NCBI GenBank assembly: GCA_030248135.1
Contig: JASANC010004740.1
Coordinates: 62,001 to 126,000 of the forward strand
Origin: Theristus sp. LFF4_11
Taxonomy: Eukaryota > Nematoda > Chromadorea > Monhysterida > Xyalidae
Direction of reading: 5' to 3'
DNA: 64,000 nucleotides
Part shown: in pieces, positions 36,419 through 57,651 of the stretch
Numbering within the stretch: the stretch's first letter is position 1
Layout: the number at the start of each line of letters is the position of its first letter
The notes under the pieces: generated by a model
Database searches by the model: none
Seen by the model: the letters and a program-made list of their open reading frames with translations, nothing else
What the model was told of the DNA's origin: nothing
Translations under genes and position numbers: made by a program

Positions 36419-36578
36419 ATCTCGCTAATATATGCAACTAGCTGATTGGTTGGTCGTAACATTTCTCAGCGCTGGTTGGTTAGTCATGAGCAATTCTCAG
36501 CGCTGATTGGTTCGTATTGCGCACTTCTCAGCGCTGATTGGTTGGTCATTACGCCATGTTTCATATATTTTCCAGATG
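36419..36578. repeat. Short inverted-repeat element with internal tandem units
   Basis: Three to four copies of a unit containing CTCAGCGCTGATTGGTT lie between ends resembling those of the 15,359-16,119 element (AGTCTATCT..., CTGATTGGTTGGTC, ...TTTCCAGAT). I read it as a deletion derivative or relative of that family. Confidence 0.55.
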
Positions 36579-37363: not shown

Positions 37364-40300
37364 GAGCGAAGCGAATGCGAACGCCGAAATTACGGATTCA
37401 ACAAACGAAAACGCGGCGCAAAGTGGCGAACGGCCGATTGAACAAGAAGGCAGTTCGTTTCTTGGGCGTTTATTTAGCGGCATCATGAAGCACATTTGTC
37501 AACAGCAGGACAACACGACGGAACACAGCAAACGACTGTCGTCACCAGCATCTGCCGTCAGAAAGCGAGCTCATGAAAGTTGGTGTTGGTGTTGCGTTGC
37601 CTGCAAACCTGCTCCATTCGAGCTTTCACGGATGGTCATTGAACTGACGTTTTTTCTCGTTTGGTAGCGTTAAGGCGCGTTTAGCAATTAGTTTTTCGTA
37701 CGTACGCACGGAACGCACGTCGTTCTAAATGCGGGGCGCAAAACAGTCGTTTCGTTTACGCCACACGACAAAACTGAAAACTGCGCACCGCATTTAGAAC
37801 GACTGAAGTGACGTGCGTACATACGGAGAACTAATTCGCGTGGCCAAAAAGTCGTGTGGTATGTCCGAACGTGCGGACGGACAAGCTTGCGCACGCGAAT
37901 TAGAATTTCGTGCGCACGACTGTCGGACGACTTGCTGCACGCACGAAATTCTAATTCGCGTGCGCATTTGTCTTTTTGCGTACGGACAGACAGTCGTTCT
38001 AAATTCCGTGCGCAAAACAGTCGTGTCGGACAGACGTAAGTCGTACGCACGAAATACTAATTCGTGTGGGCATGTGCGCACGGACAGCGGACTAAATGCT
38101 GCGCGCAAAACAGTCGTTACGTCCGAACGATGGTCGTGCGCACGAAATTCTAATTGGCGTAGCCATTTTTTAAGTTCTGTCTCCGTGCGTACGCACGAAA
38201 AACTGATTGATAAACGCGCCTTTACTTGACTCGATTCAAGTGTCGACCCAATCAGCCAACTGCCCACCCACAATGGTATTCTTCACGTTTCATGCATTCA
38301 ATCTGACACATATTCATTGCAATGTACTGACTGGAACAACAATTTTTTATTTCAGGAAACTCAGCAACACCAGTGAAAAAACGTCGCAGTGCAACGGCAG
38401 CGTCGTCGAGCGGTGAAACAGCAAACTCGCCCAATTCTGAGCATCGCAGGCGTCAGCTGCCCCGTCGGAGTGGTGGCGTTGCGGTCGCTGACAAAGGCAG
38501 CCCCACGAAGGCACACAAAGCAACAGACGACCATCGACATCGCGTCCAAGAGACGAACGAACAGAAGCTGACGCGAAAGGTCACGCGCGCTCACTACCGG
38601 GGCGACACACCGGCCGACGATGACCACAGCAGGCCGGAGGCAACGCCCTCCTCGTCACACGGTCAGTTGCGCGCTGCTATCAAGCTGAACTAGTGAATGT
38701 GCTGAATGAAAATTGCCATCTTTCGCAGCTCTGCTCGTCTCCACATCGAAAACGCCCAGCTCAAAACGAACAAAGCTCGGCCAGGACATCGGCAAAGGAC
38801 GCAAACAAGGTGCGCACAGTTCGTATTGTTGTTTTCGTTTTCAGAAATTGCAGGATGCACTTTGATTGCAGGCACACCCGGTCAACCGGTCGAGCTGTAT
38901 CGGACGGATTTGATTACGGCCATGAAAGTCAGTGACGTTGACAATTCACTGGACACGGCGAACACAATGGTGATCACAGACAGCTGGAGAAATGAGTGGA
39001 ACAAGGGCGTGCAGGTGCGCTGGTATTAGCTGGATCGCTGAGCTTGAAATAAACACAACACGGCTTTCGCAAAGCGTCGCCGTAACCGCAAGCAACACAT
39101 TCAGGTACCCGTTTCTGAAACGCCCAAGCACAAAGCAGAGTATCGTTTTCTGGACACATTTGAAACTGTGCAGCGAGCCATGAGCACCTATGCCACTGAG
39201 CACACCCCTTCAACGTCGTCGCCGTCTGAATCGTCGTCGTTTCATTTGTGAGATTATTTCGTAATTTTTATTTTTCTCCAAAACATTTTATTTTGCTTGG
39301 TGTGAACATTTTCTGACATCATTTTTTGCTCACAGTTCATTGGTTGGCGTTGCCGTTGGGCCCTGGGTTCTGGAAGCAAAATTCTCATGAACCATCATTT
39401 TGCCATGTTTTATTTGTGTTCTTGTCAGACCTGCAAAGCGTTATGTGTGTGTGTGGCGTGATGTCAACTACCGCAGCGACCTGCATCGTTTTGTGACGAC
39501 CGCACGACTGTCTGATCACGTGTGTCCGTATGACATCGATGATTTGGACGCTGCTTGGCTGCTGCTGTTCAACAAACATCGCAGAAAAATTGGTGACCAT
39601 AACAAGTGTTCAGTGCAAGTATTGCCGTATGGGTAAACGGTTTGATTCGTGTTTGGTTGATATTCCACAAAAATTCCAGGTTTGCCCGAGGTCAGTGTCG
39701 ACCAGCTGGAGCGCATTTTGGAGTGTTTGGAGACGATCGCAGCAGAAGCAATAGACGCGGCCATTCTGGACCCGCTGTCCGGCGGCGGGGGGCGTGAGTT
39801 TGATGAGACGTCAGCCTGCGACGTCTGCATGTCGGTGCGTTTGTGCGTTTGTTTTAATTTTACGTGAAATCCTGTCGACCGAGTTCGTTTGCATTGATTG
39901 ATCAGCAACGAATGCGTTTTGTTGTGCAGCCGAATCAAGAGCTGGACGACGCGATCGTGTTCTGCGACGGCTGCGACCTGTGCGTGCACCAGTCGTGCTA
40001 CGGTGTGCCGCAGCTGCCGCAAGGTGTGCCCTTTTGCAGGCTGAATGTGTGCGCAGTGTTACACGCACGTTCGTGCAGGTGCCTGGCTGTGTCGTGTCTG
40101 TGCGCTGCTCGGGGGTCGTCTGCCGGCGTGTCAGTTGTGTCCCAACCGTGGTGGTGCCATGAAGTGCACGCAGTCCGGCGAGCGATGGGCGCACGTCAGC
40201 TGTGTCCTCTGGATCCCCGAGGTGCGATTCGGCGACCCTGAGCTCCTGGAGCCGATCATGCATCTCGCCAGTGTGCCGGTCGGTTTGTGTGTGCGCTTGT

Positions 40301-43300
40301 GATTGCTGCACTACTCACATTCACCGTCGTGCAATGCGACGTAACCGCTTTGAAACGGCGCACTCAGTGGTGATGCAATTGGAGCTGCATCCTCGCACGT
40401 GTGCAGACAGCTGCCAATGTGCACAGTCCTAGGGTTGTTAAAAAAAACAAAAATCGTCATTTTTGTTTTTTTTTTTAAATTTTTTTTTTTTTTAATTTCA
40501 AAAATCAAAGTTGTGCTAAATCAATCAGGGAGTCCGAAGAACCACATATGATATGCAAGCGCCTCCCGAATGACTCCCATATGACGGAACTTTGCAGATT
40601 TTGTTTTGGTGACCTCAATTACCCCTTTTCCAAACCGTCACCATGCCTCTTCTTGTGTTTTGACCTCCAAAACGTCACTAATTGTCCCCAGCTAAACTAA
40701 TGCTAAAGTGAAGACAAACAAACCGCCTTGAAATTCGATCAATTCTTCTGATGGTGTTGCGACGACACGACACGAAGCAGCAAGCAACCAGACAACGTAG
40801 CGCTTGCAAACGGAGCAGCGAGCACAATCGGACGCTCTGCGAGGCGAATCGTCACCTTATCTGCATCGGAAATGGTAGGCCAAGCTTTGGGACGCTCAAA
40901 AACTTCATCGCAGATGTTGTCGTAGCCTAAAATCAGTCGGTAAAACGGCCCAAAATCGACTGCTAAAGGTTTTACGAGGTATAATCAAAGAAAATTTTTG
41001 TTGAACTTTCGAAAAATTTTGCCAAAATTGAGGTTTTCAGAACATATTAGAGAAAAAATTTTCGAATTTTTTTTTTTTTTAAATCGGCATTTTTGTTTTT
41101 TTTTGATCACTTTTTTTAAAAAAAAAAAATTTTCATTTTTGTTTAACAACCCTACACAGTCCACCTGCACAACAAACGTTCACCTGTCCCTTGCAGGTCA
41201 TGTGTATAAAAGCGCCGCATCAGGCCATGTGTATTTGTGTGTCAGTGCATTTGTTTTCGTTGCGTGCAGGAGCAACGCTGGCTGCTGCGCTGTTGCCTGT
41301 GCGACAAACGCGAGGGTGCGTGCATTCAGTGCGACGTGAAGACGTGCAGACACTCGTACCACGTCACCTGCGCACAGCGCAAGAACCTGGAGATGCGATC
41401 GGTCACGCTGAGCAGCGGCGAATTGAAATTGCTCGTTAGCGTGCCGCCTTTGCCACGCATGTTGCGTGCTCACGTCCTTCTTGCTCCTTGTTATCCGTTC
41501 TTTCAATTCAACATGTTTTTTGCTCACGTGACAAGCTCGAGCGCAAGTTTATGCGTACTATGGAAGTCAAGCGGTTTGGCAAGCACAAGCCGGTGGCATT
41601 TTTTGTCTCTGCCACGTCACGTGTTCTTACTGTGAACTTGCTGCCACAATCTTATCAAAACTATGCGACATGCTTCCTTGTGTAATGTGCCAATAGGCAC
41701 ACATAGACAAACTGCTGATATATTTCTGTGGACAAATATTTTTTCACGTGCTTATTTTTTGCACATGGCAGCACAATAGTTGCGAAATAGTAAATTGAAT
41801 TTCCTTATTTCGTATACACAGAAAGCACTGAAGTATTTTTCATTGGGTTTCTCCACACCCAGACGTGCGTTATGTATGATGTCCACCAAGTGCGTGCGTG
41901 TGTTGTCCTTGTACCCAGACAAAATTAAAAAAACAGATTTTTATAGCACTGCTTGCTACTGGAAATGTAATCTGGTTGACTATTGATTTTTTAAATTCAA
42001 CAGTTTTAGTGTTTTTAACTTGATCATTTTGAATTAAAGTTCAAAAATTTTAGCACTGCAAAAATCGATTGAAGAATAAGCAGGTGCAGTACTGTGTGAT
42101 CGAGCTGTCACTGAAACTGGATTTTTTCCAACGTGTCCAAAGCGCACACTAAGCAGGCTGGTGTGTCTGGTGGTGTTGAAAATTCCGTGTTGTAATGTTT
42201 GCCTCTCACCAAACCAGAGTGTTTATGTTATGCTGTCCACATTGCGTGTTGTGTTTTCTAGTGTCTGCTGTTGTGTTGTATGTCCGCTTTTGCATAATCG
42301 ATCTAGCGTGGCAAAAGAAACATTCTTTGCCACACACACACAAGCAGTACATGCCAGCAAAATGTAAAAAAACGCTCTATAATTTTTGAAAAAACGTTGA
42401 GAGCGAGAGTGTCCGTTTACTGTCTGGGGTGAAGCGAGAGGCACCGCAAAACAAATGGGCATCGTAAAAATGTTGCTGTGAAGCGTCATATCGTATGAAG
42501 GGGTGATCTGTTGCTCGCTTGCACGTGATGTTTTGAAATCGTGGTTAAAAAGTGAAAGTGCCACGCTGCCACCAAAAGACATCATAGTTTGACTCAACTT
42601 TGAACTTGACTCCAGAGGCCCAAACTTGGGAGTTGGGACACGAACAAAAGACTGTTGCTTTGCGGTGTGCGTACAGAATGCGGGGTGGTGCAGCCCGTGA
42701 GTGCTGACCGTGTGTTTCAGAGCCAGTGAGTGCTGACCGTGTGTTTCAGAGCCAGTGAGTGCTGACCGTGTGTTTCAGAGCCAGTGAGTGCTGACCGTGT
42801 GTTTCAGAGCCCGTGAGTGCTGACCGTGTGTTTCAGAGCCCGTGAGTGCTGACCGTGTGTTTCAGAGCCAGTCAGTGCTGACCGTGTGTTTCAGAGCCAG
42901 TGAGTGCTGACCGTGTGTTTCAGAGCCAGTGAGTGCTGACCGTGTGTTTCAGAGCCAGTGAGTGCTGACCGTGTGTTTCAGAGCCAGTGAGTGCTGACCG
43001 TGTGTTTCAGAGCCAGTCAGTGCTGACCGTGTGTTTCAGAGCCAGTGAGTGCTGACCGTGTGTTTCAGAGCCAGTGAGTGCTGACCGTGTGTTTCAGAGC
43101 CAGTGAGTGCTGACCGTGTGTTTCAGAGCCAGTGAGTGCTGACCGTGTGTTTCAGAGCCAGTGAGTGCTGACCGTGTGTTTCAGAGCCAGTGAGTGCTGA
43201 CCGTGTGTTTCAGAGCCAGTGAGTGCTGACCGTGTGTTTCAGAGCCAGTGAGTGCTGACCGTGTGTTTCAGAGCCAGTGAGTGCTGACCGTGTGTTTCAG

Positions 43301-46300
43301 AGCCAGTGAGTGCTGACCGTGTGTTTCAGAGCCAGTGAGTGCTGACCGTGTGTTTCAGAGCCAGTGAGTGTTGACCGTGTGTTTCAAAGCCAGTGAGTGT
43401 TGACCGTGTGTTTCAGAGCTACTGTGCGAAGCACTCGCGCCAGCCGTCCACTGGTTTGTTCGACCACGCGTCTCCACCGAAGTCGGCGAGGCAGCAAGCG
43501 ATCGACGAGGCTGCGCGCGCTTCGTTGCATCCAAGTGCTGCCTCATCGCGGGCTCCCTCACCGAAACCACCATGTGAGCCGGTCGCTTCCGATTGTGGGG
43601 TCACGTGGAGCACAAAACAACACGCAACGCACTGATTGGCTGAGTGATGCATAACGAGTGCAATGTAGTGTACTGTTGGTGTTGTGCAGTTGCGCCCGGC
43701 CCTGTGACCGCAGCGACGTTGGTCGACTCGCCACGGAAGCGCAAGGCGCGTCGCATGCACGCCATGTACGCCCGGTTCTACCAGTTCGCGAGTGTGCAAC
43801 GCTGCGCGCAGCTGGTGACAGCCGACGCGGACTCGCTCATCTCGCCCGTCTACGAGTACTGGAAGATGAAACGCAAGGTGCGTGGCTGCTTTCGCTTGCA
43901 CCACTGCGCAGTCATGCCGTCGAATGCACCTCTGATGGCGCCCGTTCACTAATGCAACACACAGCAGCTGCTCACGTGCGCTCTCTCGTATTTCAGCGCA
44001 ACAACAACACGCCGCTGTTGACGTCGCGCGAGGATGACGCTGAGATGCTGGAGCGTCAGGAGGAGGAGGCACTGATCAGACGTGTGCGCACGCTGATTGC
44101 ACTGCGCCAAAACTTGGAAAAGGTGCACTTTTGGAACAGTGCGAAAATTTAGAGCTTTACGAGTGATGCAGCTAACTAAAAAAACAGCGAGCGGTTGTTG
44201 TATTGTTTGTAAACAAAACGTGCACAAACAACAATTGCATTCTCAGGCTCGCAACCTGTGCTACTTGATCAGTCGACGTGAGAAACTGAAACGTGATTAC
44301 GTGAAACTGCTCGGGGACACTGCGTCGCAATTCCACCCGATCATGGACGATGACAGGTGTCTGATCAGTAAACGGGAGGCTGCAAGTCTCACTGATAAAT
44401 ACTTGCGACCGTTGGCCGGCTTTGATGAGGTCGTTTTTGACAGGGTCTCAGACGACGACGTCAACGTTGAAAGTGAGTTCATGTGAAGCGCTGTTCTTTC
44501 CGATTTTCAGTCGAACCATTTTCGGTGTCACCTGATAAAAAAAATTGAATCAACCTGAACATTCTAGATTTTGGAATGTGAAAAGAAAAACTAAAGCTTG
44601 AAACAATCGAAACGCCAGTCTCTTGTTCAGCGGACGACTGGATCGAGGCCTGTGGCGGCACCGTGCCCGGCGAGCAGCCCCCGAGCGGGCGAGCCAGCCA
44701 CGCAAGGAAGCGTCGTTTCTCGTCTTGCTCCTCAGTCGGTTCGGCACACTCAAGTTGCGTCGTGTCACCATCAGCACACACAAACACTGAACTTAGTCCC
44801 GGTGCGAAACGCTCGTCGTCAAAGAGCACTACTGCTACTAGCAACAACAACAATCATTCGATTGTGACCCGTGCTGACTCAGCAGCAAGGGGCGATGCTG
44901 ATGGGCGACTGCGCTCGACGTCCCCGCCATTCAGGCAGCCGCTGCATGATGCAGCCGGTGCACCGCCAGCCGACGTGCTCGCTGCTGAGCGATATTGGTA
45001 AGGTGTAGTAAGGTGACGGGGGCTGTTGCTGTTCGTTGCTGAGCGACATTGGTAAGGTGTAGTAAGGTGACGGGGGCTGTTGCTGTTCGTTGCTGAGCGA
45101 CATTGGTAAGGTGTAGTAAGGTGACGGGGGCTGTTGCTGTTCGTTGCTGAGCGATATTGGTAAGGTGTAGTAAGGTGACGGGGGCTGTTGCTGTTCGTTG
45201 CTGAGCGATATTGGTAAGGTGTAGTAAGGTGACGGGGGCTGTTGCTGTTCGTTGCTGCACCCGGAGGCGCCAAGTCGAGCTGCTGGCGTGTGCGGCCGAA
45301 GCGGCCTCACTGCGAGCAAGCGCCAGCGTCGCAACCGGTGAGCGGGGCGCTTGCAACGTGCGCCCTGCTGCATATTGCCAGTGGGGCTTGTTTCAGAACA
45401 TTCCTGCTTGTTTATGCCATGAAAGCTGACGGCCACGAGATTGCGCTGACTTTGCAGGTACGAGCAGGCGCGCGTGTCAGCGGAGAAGCTGCGTGGTGAG
45501 CAGGCGAATAGCAGCGTCGCTCGCTCGCTGGTGCTCGGCAGTGAGCGTGCGCACAAGTGCGTGTACGCAGACGAGCGGCATCTGCACCGCGACACCAACT
45601 ACAACCTGGCGCCGGACGCACCCGCGTTGCTGTTGCCTGCGTACGCACGTCGCCAGCTGCTGATGACGGCCGTCGACAACGAGCACGTCAACGGTGACAC
45701 CTGTGACACGTGCGACAACACGCAACAGCTGCACATCGACGCCATCATGAGCACTGCGCTCACTCACACACACAGCAGCATGCCACGTCTGTCGCCGCAG
45801 GTGGTGCGTACTTCCACAAACGTTGCCCCAAGTTTATTCAAAGTGATCAGTCTAACACAGCACAAAGCACAAAAGCTGCTGCAATTTCTATTGCAATACA
45901 ACAACGTTCGTTTGCAGACTTTTCTATTCTAATGTTAAAAAACAGTTCAATGGTTTGGTTGCTTTTATGCTTGTGCAACTGTGCATAGTGTTTTCCTGAG
46001 CAACGTTGTTCAGCCTGACCACCAGCCGGCTGTCAGCAACGCCCGCTCGTCCTGTGGCGTTGCCCCGGTGCATGCCCGTCGTGTCCCTGCGACGTTTTCG
46101 CCGACACGTCCGTTGGCGAGACCGGTCAGCTTTCTAATTGACAACCTACTTCATTGGTGACAGACGATTCGTGCAAAATTGGTGCTTGCTTGCGCACAGC
46201 ACAGTCGCTGTGGTTTGCTGTTTGCAGACGTACACGCACAACAACACGAGTGCAATGAAGCAGCAGCGTGTCACGCCAGCACAGCAGCCGATCTACCATG

Positions 46301-50505: not shown

Positions 50506-51391
50506 CTCATCATCAACAAAAATTGATAATTCCTCTGGTAATAGAAAAATGAAACACAACAAACACAATTCAGCCAGCGCAAAAGCTAAATTTTTAAAAG
50601 AAAATACATCATACACAGCTACACTGTTTCAGCTACAGAACTGTTCTTGCTACATTGCAATCATACAATGTAGCTGAATCAATAAACTGCACTAAGCTAG
50701 CACGCAACGAGGCACACAGAGAATAAATATTACTAAAACCGCGACAGGTATGAAAAGGTGGATAAAAAAACAAGACACATGTTATGTACATACAAGCGGC
50801 TCTAAAAAATACAGCCTGTCTGTTTGCATGCGTGTGTTTGCTTTTCAAAATTCAAATACAAACCACCCGACGGAGTTCCTTGGCCATGGTGCGACAATCT
50901 GCGAACAAGACACATTGTTGTTGTTGTTGTTGTTGTTGTGTGTGTGTGTGTGTGTTCGTGTGTGTGTGGTTGGGCGGTTGCGTGCGTGCGTGCGTCCGTG
51001 AGTGAGTGCGTGAGTGAGTGAGTGAGTGAGTGAGTGAGTGAGTGAGTGAGTGAGTGAGTGAGTGAGTGAGTGAGTGAGTGAGTGAGTGAGTGAGTGAGTG
51101 AGTGAGTGAGTGAGTGAGTGAGTGAGTGAGTGAGTGAGTGAGTGAGTGAGTGAGTGAGTGAGTGAGTGAGTGAGTGAGTGAGTGAGTGAGTGAGTGAGTG
51201 AGCAAACGAGCGAGCAAATTACAAATTACAAATTACGATCTGACTTTAAATTTTAACCAACTGTTTTTGCCTTTGTAGCAGAAACACAAGAAATTTCATG
51301 CTTGAAATCTTGTGAATGAGAACGAGAATGAGAATGAGAGCACAAATAGCGGTAGTTGTCTGCCAGTCATACATGTTTGGACAATGGCACA
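50506..51391. other. Intergenic region with compound microsatellite
   Basis: Includes (TTG)n, (TG)n and a long (GAGT)n tract; no gene is seen outside the repeat. Confidence 0.5.
50918..51202. repeat. Compound microsatellite (TTG)n-(TG)n-(GAGT)n
   Basis: (TTG)n from about 50,918, (TG)n to about 50,985, then about 50 copies of GAGT/GTGA from about 50,999 to 51,202. Because four is coprime to three, all minus-strand frames read as Leu-Thr-His-Ser repeats. This is not a gene. Confidence 0.95.
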
Positions 51392-56100: not shown

Positions 56101-57651
56101 GTGCCAAGGCAAAGGCCTACCATTCCAGGTGGACAAGCGGTGCCCTCGTCAGTTACGATTGCAAATGGACTTGATTCGGCCGTCTCCTGCGCGCATTCAG
56201 CAGCTTCGGCAACACTTTGCGGCACGTCGAGAACGCAGCGCATGCGCTCGCAGCAAAACACAAAGCCAGGCGCACACGCAATCCCCTCGGGTTTGCCGCC
56301 AAAGATGCTGGTAATCTGAAATGCAAGGTCACCGACTGTGTTTCAAATTGATGTTTCTGGTGTTGAAGTCTGCTTTTGTTGTTTGAAAAAACACAAACCG
56401 GGTCCGGCTGTACTTCCACATCCGGCACCGACTCGTCAGGCTCCACAATTTCCAGAATGTATTCCGTTTCCGTGTCCGTATCTTCCGTTGATTGGCTGTC
56501 CGAAATTTCTTCGCTGAACATTTCTCCATCCTCAAAGCTGTCTTCTCCGCCTTCTCTGCTTGTTTCAACACTGAGACTATTGAAGTTTTCATGGCTAAGT
56601 CCGCTGATTTCAGCACTTTGGGCACTAATTTCTGGTGGTCGACTAATGTCTCCGCTAGCTTCAATTATTTCGTGGCTTGATGCAACGGCTTCATGGCTAA
56701 GTCCGCTGATTTCAGCACTTTGGGCACTAATTTCTGGTTGTCGATTAACGTCTCCACTAGCTTCAACTATTTCGTTGTTTGGTTCAAGGTTTTCATGGCT
56801 AAGTCCGCTGATTTCAGCACTTTGGGCACTAATTTCTGGCTGTTGACTAACGTCTCCACTAGCTTCAATTATTTCGTGGCTTGATTCAATGTTTTCGTAG
56901 TTTAGTTCGCTGATTTCAGTACTTTGGGCACTGAGTTCTGAATGACTAGTTGTTCCGTCGCCTGAAAGTGTTAGAGGCTTTCAAGAATCGTGGGAAATGT
57001 TATGAAGGTGAATAAAACTGTCGCAAGCAACACACACTGTACCTGAAGAATATTCATTCGATTCAACCGTGTTGGTGACAATAATTTCCATTTGTGGTGT
57101 TTCATAATTTGAAGTTGTCGTCATTGTGTGCTCTTGGTCGTCTGAACCACAGTCTGCTGGGATGCAATGCCCACTAACAACACAGTACACCTAAAAATTG
57201 ACTCATCGTAGGTATAAAAATAGCTTATGTTAAAAACGGTCATGACGCACGGTTGCAGGCGGGCACGTTGTGCTGATGTAGTGGTCGGTCGGGGGTGGCA
57301 CTGGCGGATCGGCAATAACCGGGAATTCGGTCGACACGTCAACGCACTCGGCGTCTTCGGTCAAACTCTCAGGCACGTCAAGCACACATTTCATTTGCTC
57401 AAAGCAGAACACAAACCCTGGCGCGCATGCTGTTGCCGACTGCAGTTCACTGTGGTAAACGTAGCTCTGAACAAATTTGCAACCCATTTTTGGTCAGTTT
57501 TCGTTCTTCTTTTTTGTTGTTCCGAATGTCCGTTTCCTACATCTGCTTGACGCTATCACAACGCAGCGTTTCATGTGTTTTTCAAGCTAACCTGGACTGT
57601 GACTGCAGCGGTCAACAAAGTTGTCGCTACCAGCCGGTGATTCGACCACAT
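53141..57651 (-). CDS. Mucin-like surface protein with two copies of a Cys module
   Basis: Exons with matching phases: 57592-57651 (signal peptide MWSNHRLVATTLLTAAVTVQ), 57251-57466, 57043-57190, 56399-56961, 56121-56315, 54629-56043, 54426-54544. Two modules each read ACAPGFVFCxExMxCVLDVPxS...EC...CPP..., then YCVVSGxCIxxDCG on a separate exon. The first module is followed by a Glu/Ser-rich region with about three and a half 34-residue repeats (EISAQSAEISGLSHE). The second is followed by about 450 residues of Thr/Ser/Pro with an STSAST tract, typical of heavy O-glycosylation. The exon at 54,426 encodes a membrane span (AGVAGTAVVIAGAAAYVLL). Possible further exons are 53,957-54,018 (phase agrees) and 53,141-53,388 (second span FFSTLLLIAVFCVAALLCKRK, then stop); the link to the last is not proven. 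The Cys module is not one I recognise, and it differs from the usual chitin-binding peritrophin spacing. Confidence 0.72.
53670..53918. mobile_element. Short MITE with TA target duplication
   Basis: Termini AAGTCTTGCATATAAGG and CCTTATATGCAAGACTT are perfect inverted repeats flanked by TA on both sides (53,668-53,669 and 53,919-53,920). About 250 bp, with internal TTATAAG words and no ORF. It lies between the last two candidate exons of the mucin-like gene. Confidence 0.8.

What the first reader, a model, noticed from the sequence alone, without database searches (positions are those of the whole stretch)
42692..43416. Tandem array of 25 intron-like 29-bp units ending at a real splice acceptor in JADE
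Each unit holds a donor (GTGAGT), a branch-like CTGAC and an acceptor (TTTCAG), separated by a 5-base piece, and the terminal unit's TTTCAG is the acceptor of the exon encoding SYCAKHS. The acceptor region of this intron has apparently been amplified 25-fold with near-perfect conservation. The array offers 25 alternative acceptors and about as many donors. It could support recursive or zero-to-5-nt microexon splicing, buffer acceptor use, or impair splicing. Using an earlier acceptor without re-splicing puts an immediate stop in frame (AGC CAG TGA), so array length could tune JADE output. Sequence structure is seen; function is inference.
Basis: partly seen in the sequence, partly recalled or inferred. 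Interest (0 to 1): 0.82.

Follow-up and report, generated by a model that had tools for sequence, protein, structure and literature searches.

The report
Splice-acceptor minisatellite in nematode-like JADE gene
A short piece at the end of one intron of a nematode-like gene has been copied 25 times in a row, giving the cell many look-alike splicing points of which only the last keeps the protein reading frame open; it resembles repeats already described in amphioxus, and its effect on the gene is not yet known.

Summary
Positions 42692-43416 are 25 in-register 29-bp units (18 identical to the consensus, 8 substitutions in the other 7), found at one place in the held genome. The last unit ends at the 3' splice site of a JADE intron fixed by homology (41435-43416; ELKLL|SYCAKHS). 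TTTCAG is intact in 24 of 25 units, GTGAGT in 23 of 25. All 23 intact upstream acceptors lead to a stop within 2 or 14 codons; only the terminal one stays open.

It is best read as a minisatellite grown at an intron-exon boundary, a kind called 'mirage' in amphioxus, where regular splicing is reported undisturbed; a human ABCA7 repeat is the donor-side counterpart. Splicing out single units is unlikely: 24 nt, against 55 nt for the gene's shortest homology-supported intron. Most likely the last acceptor makes the working mRNA and use of earlier copies is wasted; tuning by array length is possible but untested. A tentative donor-side array (54 bp x 5.2, 44979-45257) lies 1.6 kb downstream.

The parts
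42692..43416 (+). Array A: 25 units of 29 bp, AGCCA|GTGAGTGCTGACCGTGTGTTTCAG; the repeat runs 3 nt (AGC) into the exon, to 43419
41270..41434 (+). Upstream JADE exon, ending ...GELKLL, donor CTC|GTTAGC
   Evidence: gapless protein alignment across the junction; model
41435..43416 (+). JADE intron of 1,982 nt that ends with array A
43411..43416 (+). Terminal TTTCAG, the only acceptor of the array that keeps JADE open
43417..43573 (+). Downstream JADE exon starting SYCAKHS, the end of the second zinc-binding (ePHD) module
42866..42894 (+). Unit 7, donor-like site changed to GTCAGT (unit 12, 43011-43039, likewise)
43359..43387 (+). Unit 24, acceptor changed to TTTCAA
44979..45257 (+). Array B (tentative part): 54-bp unit x 5.2, a GTAAGG donor-like site in each of five full units; first unit overlaps a likely exon end ATATTG|GTAAGG at 44997/44998
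   Evidence: no homology support for the flanking exons

Best explanation
A minisatellite that grew at the 3' boundary of a JADE intron, of the kind called mirage in amphioxus. The last 24 nt of the intron with the first bases of the exon were duplicated (AGC at both ends offers microhomology) and then expanded to 25 copies by slippage or unequal exchange. Shown: the array, its place at the acceptor, its splice-like signals, the frame consequences. Inferred: the spliceosome mainly joins the upstream exon to the terminal acceptor and makes normal JADE; occasional use of an upstream copy gives an mRNA with a stop within the ePHD module, probably removed by nonsense-mediated decay. Any effect of array length on JADE output would be a by-product of this leak.
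For: 25 regular units ending at a homology-fixed acceptor; single locus; the repeat runs 3 nt into the exon and stops abruptly on the left; 23 of 23 intact upstream acceptors give early stops while the terminal one stays open for the 235 codons translated; no unusual RNA fold; single-copy JADE with its conserved domains, so a working product is expected; the published mirage description fits: boundary repeats, units of 10-72 bp in Adh3, splice signals in many units (PMC3087553, passages).
Against: No RNA evidence at all. The overlap with the exon is only 3 exact bases, so a purely intronic minisatellite that happens to end at the acceptor is not excluded; the wider likeness of exon start and unit start is not significant once AGC is granted (59 of 921 AGC-starting 10-mers do as well). 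Variant units lie inside (5, 6, 7, 12) as well as at the edges, so the homogenised-middle pattern is only partial. The presence of GTGAGT in the unit is uncommon by chance and is left as coincidence.
Confidence: 0.75

Rival explanations
1. A length-dependent splicing brake: 23 upstream acceptors compete with the productive one, each use is a dead end, and copy number sets the share of productive JADE mRNA.
For: All 23 intact upstream acceptors are dead ends; unit sites score within the range of the gene's own sites, and the unit donor (5.75) above the intron's real donor (1.82) on a small matrix; in ABCA7, repeat length correlates with exon 19 skipping and inversely with expression (PMC5954066, abstract and passages).
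Against: No RNA or population data; the best-matching precedent reports no interference with regular splicing; five other intron sites outside the array score at least as well as the unit donor, and one as well as the unit acceptor.
Confidence: 0.12
2. Chain of mini-introns or recursive splicing through the array, leaving AGCCA pieces or none.
For: Each of 22 units has both signals; three or six 5-nt pieces would keep the frame; one boundary-crossing duplication made a real new intron in potato (PMC4974935, abstract and Results).
Against: 24 nt is under half the shortest homology-supported intron, 55 nt; AGGTGAGT...TTTTCAG pairs implying introns of 18-48 nt are no commoner than the backward control (12 against 12), though the same test at 49-79 nt is barely above control (19 against 15), so it has little power.
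Confidence: 0.04
3. The array is real but its copy number is an assembly product.
For: Longest exact self-repeat is 323 bp. If the host were Plectus murrayi (published GC 43.60%, sample GC 43.6%), its published assembly used SOAPdenovo with 57-mers (PMC8022722, sections 8 and 14).
Against: No N in the window or in L001-L036; host identity not established; the published assembly figures (225.7 Mb, 4,505 scaffolds kept) differ from the 159.4 Mb in 3,744 contigs held here.
Confidence: 0.12
4. A repeat kept for a DNA-level role (for example protein binding) unrelated to splicing.
For: None gathered; possible in principle for any intronic minisatellite.
Against: Its end falls at the splice site, which a DNA-level role does not predict.
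Confidence: 0.04

Closest known systems
[quoted passage not shown] PMC3087553, passages
   Same: Minisatellite-like repeat at an intron-exon boundary; BflGb6 repeats the intron 3' end with the exon start; Adh3 units of 10-72 bp; many units carry AG/GT splice signals
   Different: Here a nematode-like host, 25 units against 6 and 3 in the two BflGb6 haplotypes, and only 3 exact exon bases in the repeat; no RT-PCR and no length variation known
Human ABCA7 intron 18 VNTR; PMC5954066, abstract and passages
   Same: 25-bp unit x 23.7 copies in the reference, its first GT being the canonical donor of exon 18; one unit can be retained by a cryptic donor; early stop
   Different: Donor side, not acceptor; measured length effect on splicing (12 to 427 units seen)
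Human IFI6 (6-16) minisatellite, Cuin and Porter 1995; title seen in a reference list only
   Different: Donor side; the 12-nt unit is recalled, paper not held
Potato RdRp intron gain by tandem duplication; PMC4974935, abstract and Results section
   Same: Duplication of an intron 3' end with the exon start, reusing acceptor signals, with a cryptic donor
   Different: One extra copy and RNA-seq proof of a new intron; the donor came from exon sequence

Membership tests
Mirage minisatellite | Tandem repeat that crosses an intron-exon boundary | tested here: met
   Narrowly: the repeat runs 3 nt into the exon
Mirage minisatellite | Minisatellite-sized unit (10-72 bp in Adh3, about 150-160 bp in globins) | tested here: met
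   29 bp, 25 units (sizes)
Mirage minisatellite | Splice signals in many units | tested here: met
   TTTCAG 24 of 25, GTGAGT 23 of 25
Mirage minisatellite | Homogenised interior, divergent edges | tested here: inconclusive
   Units 13-23 identical and units 1, 24, 25 variant, but units 5, 6, 7, 12 vary too
Mirage minisatellite | Length differs between haplotypes | not testable with these tools
   One assembly; no second JADE copy found
Mirage minisatellite | Regular splicing undisturbed | not testable with these tools
   No RNA
Splice-donor VNTR (ABCA7, IFI6) | The repeat holds the canonical donor of an exon | tested here: not met
   Array A holds the acceptor; its intron's donor CTC|GTTAGC lies 1.26 kb before the array. 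Array B may meet it, tentatively
Introner element (definition recalled) | Same intron-like unit dispersed over many genes | tested here: not met
   Only this locus matched
Recursive splice site / zero-length exon (definition recalled) | Acceptor directly followed by donor (AG|GT) | tested here: not met
   Five bases lie between TTTCAG and GTGAGT
JADE family | EPL1-like part, PHD finger, ePHD module | tested here: met
   Pfam EPL1, PHD, zf-HC5HC2H and zf-HC5HC2H_2 above their cut-offs; best solved relatives JADE1 and JADE3

The most novel reading that the evidence does not exclude
The array is a heritable, length-variable brake on JADE: every extra unit adds one more usable but unproductive acceptor, and a donor that can feed multi-unit recursive splicing, so copy number sets how much of this chromatin regulator is made. 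With a second array at a donor of what is probably the same gene, one gene would carry variable repeats at both kinds of splice site, ready-made material for new introns.
Probability: 0.12. Interest if true: 0.72.

Novelty: new member of a known kind. Interest (0 to 1): 0.4.

Why it matters
It is a natural test of how a spliceosome chooses among two dozen near-identical acceptors of which one is productive, and of whether boundary minisatellites known from amphioxus also arise in nematodes. If array length differs between individuals, the effect of acceptor number on splicing could be read directly in living animals, and the birth of introns from such repeats could be watched.

Tried and rejected
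Dispersed or introner-like origin: rejected, one locus. RNA structure of one and of three units: no better than shuffles (z 0.66 and 0.82). Coding array: rejected; no frame of 60 aa or more runs through it in the list. A second allele or paralogue with another array length: none found; two weak matches elsewhere (51% and 45% identity over 57 and 53 residues) are PHD-type and not JADE copies. Minimum intron length: genome patterns inconclusive and the local version on 264 kb too small. An acceptor-N5-donor pattern hit an unrelated repeat family. Homology for the exons beside array B: none. Rfam on the window: no match. Host identity: only nearest Plectus sambesii. Literature: ten searches; among their listings I saw no acceptor-side array of like copy number and none from a nematode, but no search asked for nematode mirages and the library omits most subscription papers.
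Full report
What is there. The window is contig C2998:62001-126000 of a genome of 159.4 Mb in 3,744 contigs. Tandem Repeats Finder reports 42692-43419 with period 29, 25.1 copies, 98% matches and no indels. In register there are 25 units: 18 equal to AGCCAGTGAGTGCTGACCGTGTGTTTCAG and 7 with 8 substitutions in all: AGCCC in units 1, 5 and 6; GTCAGT in units 7 and 12; a C-to-T change in units 24 and 25; TTTCAA in unit 24. A three-unit query matched only this locus.

Gene context. A 454-residue product put together from the surrounding exons has Plectus sambesii as best hit (49% identity over 99% of the query, E 1.8e-143; 363 hits among the 7,995 candidates scored, 120 listed). The best solved relatives are JADE1 and JADE3, and Pfam finds EPL1, PHD and ePHD-type modules above cut-off. 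The alignment runs without a gap through GELKLL|SYCAKHS, which fixes the intron as 41435-43416, with donor CTC|GTTAGC and the terminal TTTCAG as acceptor. A frame-preserving donor 6 nt further on (AGC|GTGCCG) would add two residues and fits the alignment less well (sequence). The core of the gene is single copy in the held genome: 9 of 11 matches are here, the other 2 are weak PHD-type matches. The sample GC of 43.6% equals the 43.60% published for Plectus murrayi (PMC8022722, passages and sections 8 and 14), but the assembly figures differ, so this is only a hint.

Splice signals. I modelled 13 introns. Eight lie in the homology-supported stretch; the first three and the last two rest on frame and consensus alone. 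On a small matrix from 11 of them (the array A and array B introns left out) the array donor scores 5.75, the real donor of the array intron 1.82 and the unit acceptor 4.73; leave-one-out ranges of the training sites are 1.69 to 11.97 for donors and -0.16 to 11.02 for acceptors. Of 4,527 GT and 3,228 AG sites on the + strand of the window, the array's own included, 4.7% and 9.4% score at least as high as the unit's. In the same intron outside the array, five donor-like sites and one acceptor-like site do too. So the unit's sites are plausible but not exceptional. The shortest homology-supported intron is 55 nt (40024-40078); a single unit offers 24 nt. Genome-wide pattern tests for short introns were not informative: 12 matches against 12 backward controls at 18-48 nt, 19 against 15 at 49-79 nt.

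Consequences for the mRNA. TTTCAG is intact in 24 of 25 units, GTGAGT in 23, both in 22. Of 23 intact upstream acceptors, 21 give a stop after 2 codons and 2 after 14. The terminal acceptor stays open through the 235 codons translated. With 0 to 6 five-base pieces added, the counts 0, 3 and 6 keep the frame. A productive mRNA thus needs the terminal acceptor; what share of transcripts uses it is unknown.

A second array. At 44979-45257 lies a 54-bp unit, 5.2 copies, 98% matches, again matched at this locus only. Each of five full units holds GTAAGG, and the first overlaps what I read as an exon end, ATATTG|GTAAGG. The intron model 44998-45266 joins open frames but has no homology support, so the donor, and its belonging to JADE, are tentative. 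In 264 kb (the window and 20 stretches of 10 kb) three rows have at least 5 copies, a period of 15 or more and at least 95% matches: these two and one on L035. As the window was chosen for this finding, that is no measure of clustering.

Origin. The repeat runs 3 nt (AGC) into the exon and stops abruptly on the left. AGC at both ends of the unit may have served as microhomology for the first duplication; this is inference. The wider likeness of exon start and unit start is rare among all 10-mers after AG (5 of 3,122) but not among those that begin with AGC (59 of 921), so it proves nothing further. GTGAGT so close before a TTTCAG is uncommon (0 of 442 sampled sites), and I have no better account of it than coincidence.

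Comparison with what is known. PMC3087553 (abstract and passages) describes mirages in amphioxus: minisatellite-like duplications of intron-exon boundaries on either side, many units carrying AG/GT signals, lengths differing between haplotypes, and no apparent interference with regular splicing; its authors propose them as a source of new introns. PMC5954066 (abstract and passages) describes the ABCA7 repeat, 25 bp x 23.7, which begins at a canonical donor and whose length goes with exon 19 skipping. PMC4974935 (abstract and Results) documents an intron born from one boundary-crossing duplication in potato. PMC4889670 (passages) gives the C. elegans acceptor consensus UUUUCAG/R, which GUGUUUCAG/A here nearly meets. 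The array meets three mirage features tested, one of them narrowly; one was inconclusive and two could not be tested. It is best filed as a new member of that kind.

Verdict. The regulatory reading is possible but has no direct evidence here; the default is a tolerated minisatellite with the last acceptor doing the work. The chief unknowns are RNA, length variation and the reliability of the assembled copy number (longest exact self-repeat 323 bp).

Noticed in passing
44979-45257: 54-bp unit x 5.2, 98% matches, with GTAAGG in each full unit, at a likely donor downstream in what is probably the same gene.
   Followed up: partly
L027 (- strand, about 1444) and L031 (+ strand, about 1256): Dispersed repeat with TTTCAGCCTTGGTGAGT; TTTCAG-N5-GTGAGT has 566 + 566 matches genome-wide against 11 + 11 controls, nearly all of the listed rows being this 17-mer, and both copies read hold an intron-like GTGAGATAGAAG...TTTTTCAG stretch. 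Not related to array A.
   Followed up: partly
56585-56940: 102-bp repeat x 3.5 (88%) lying inside a 275-aa open frame on the - strand (56153-56980), so probably a protein repeat.
   Followed up: partly
36441-36549; L018:5835-5912: 31-bp tandem repeat with a reverse-strand look-alike on another contig, suggesting a dispersed family.
   Followed up: no
L035:6-1242: 52-bp repeat x 23.8, 96% matches, at a contig start.
   Followed up: no
50998-51202: GTGA tetranucleotide array, about 51 copies, 99% matches.
   Followed up: no
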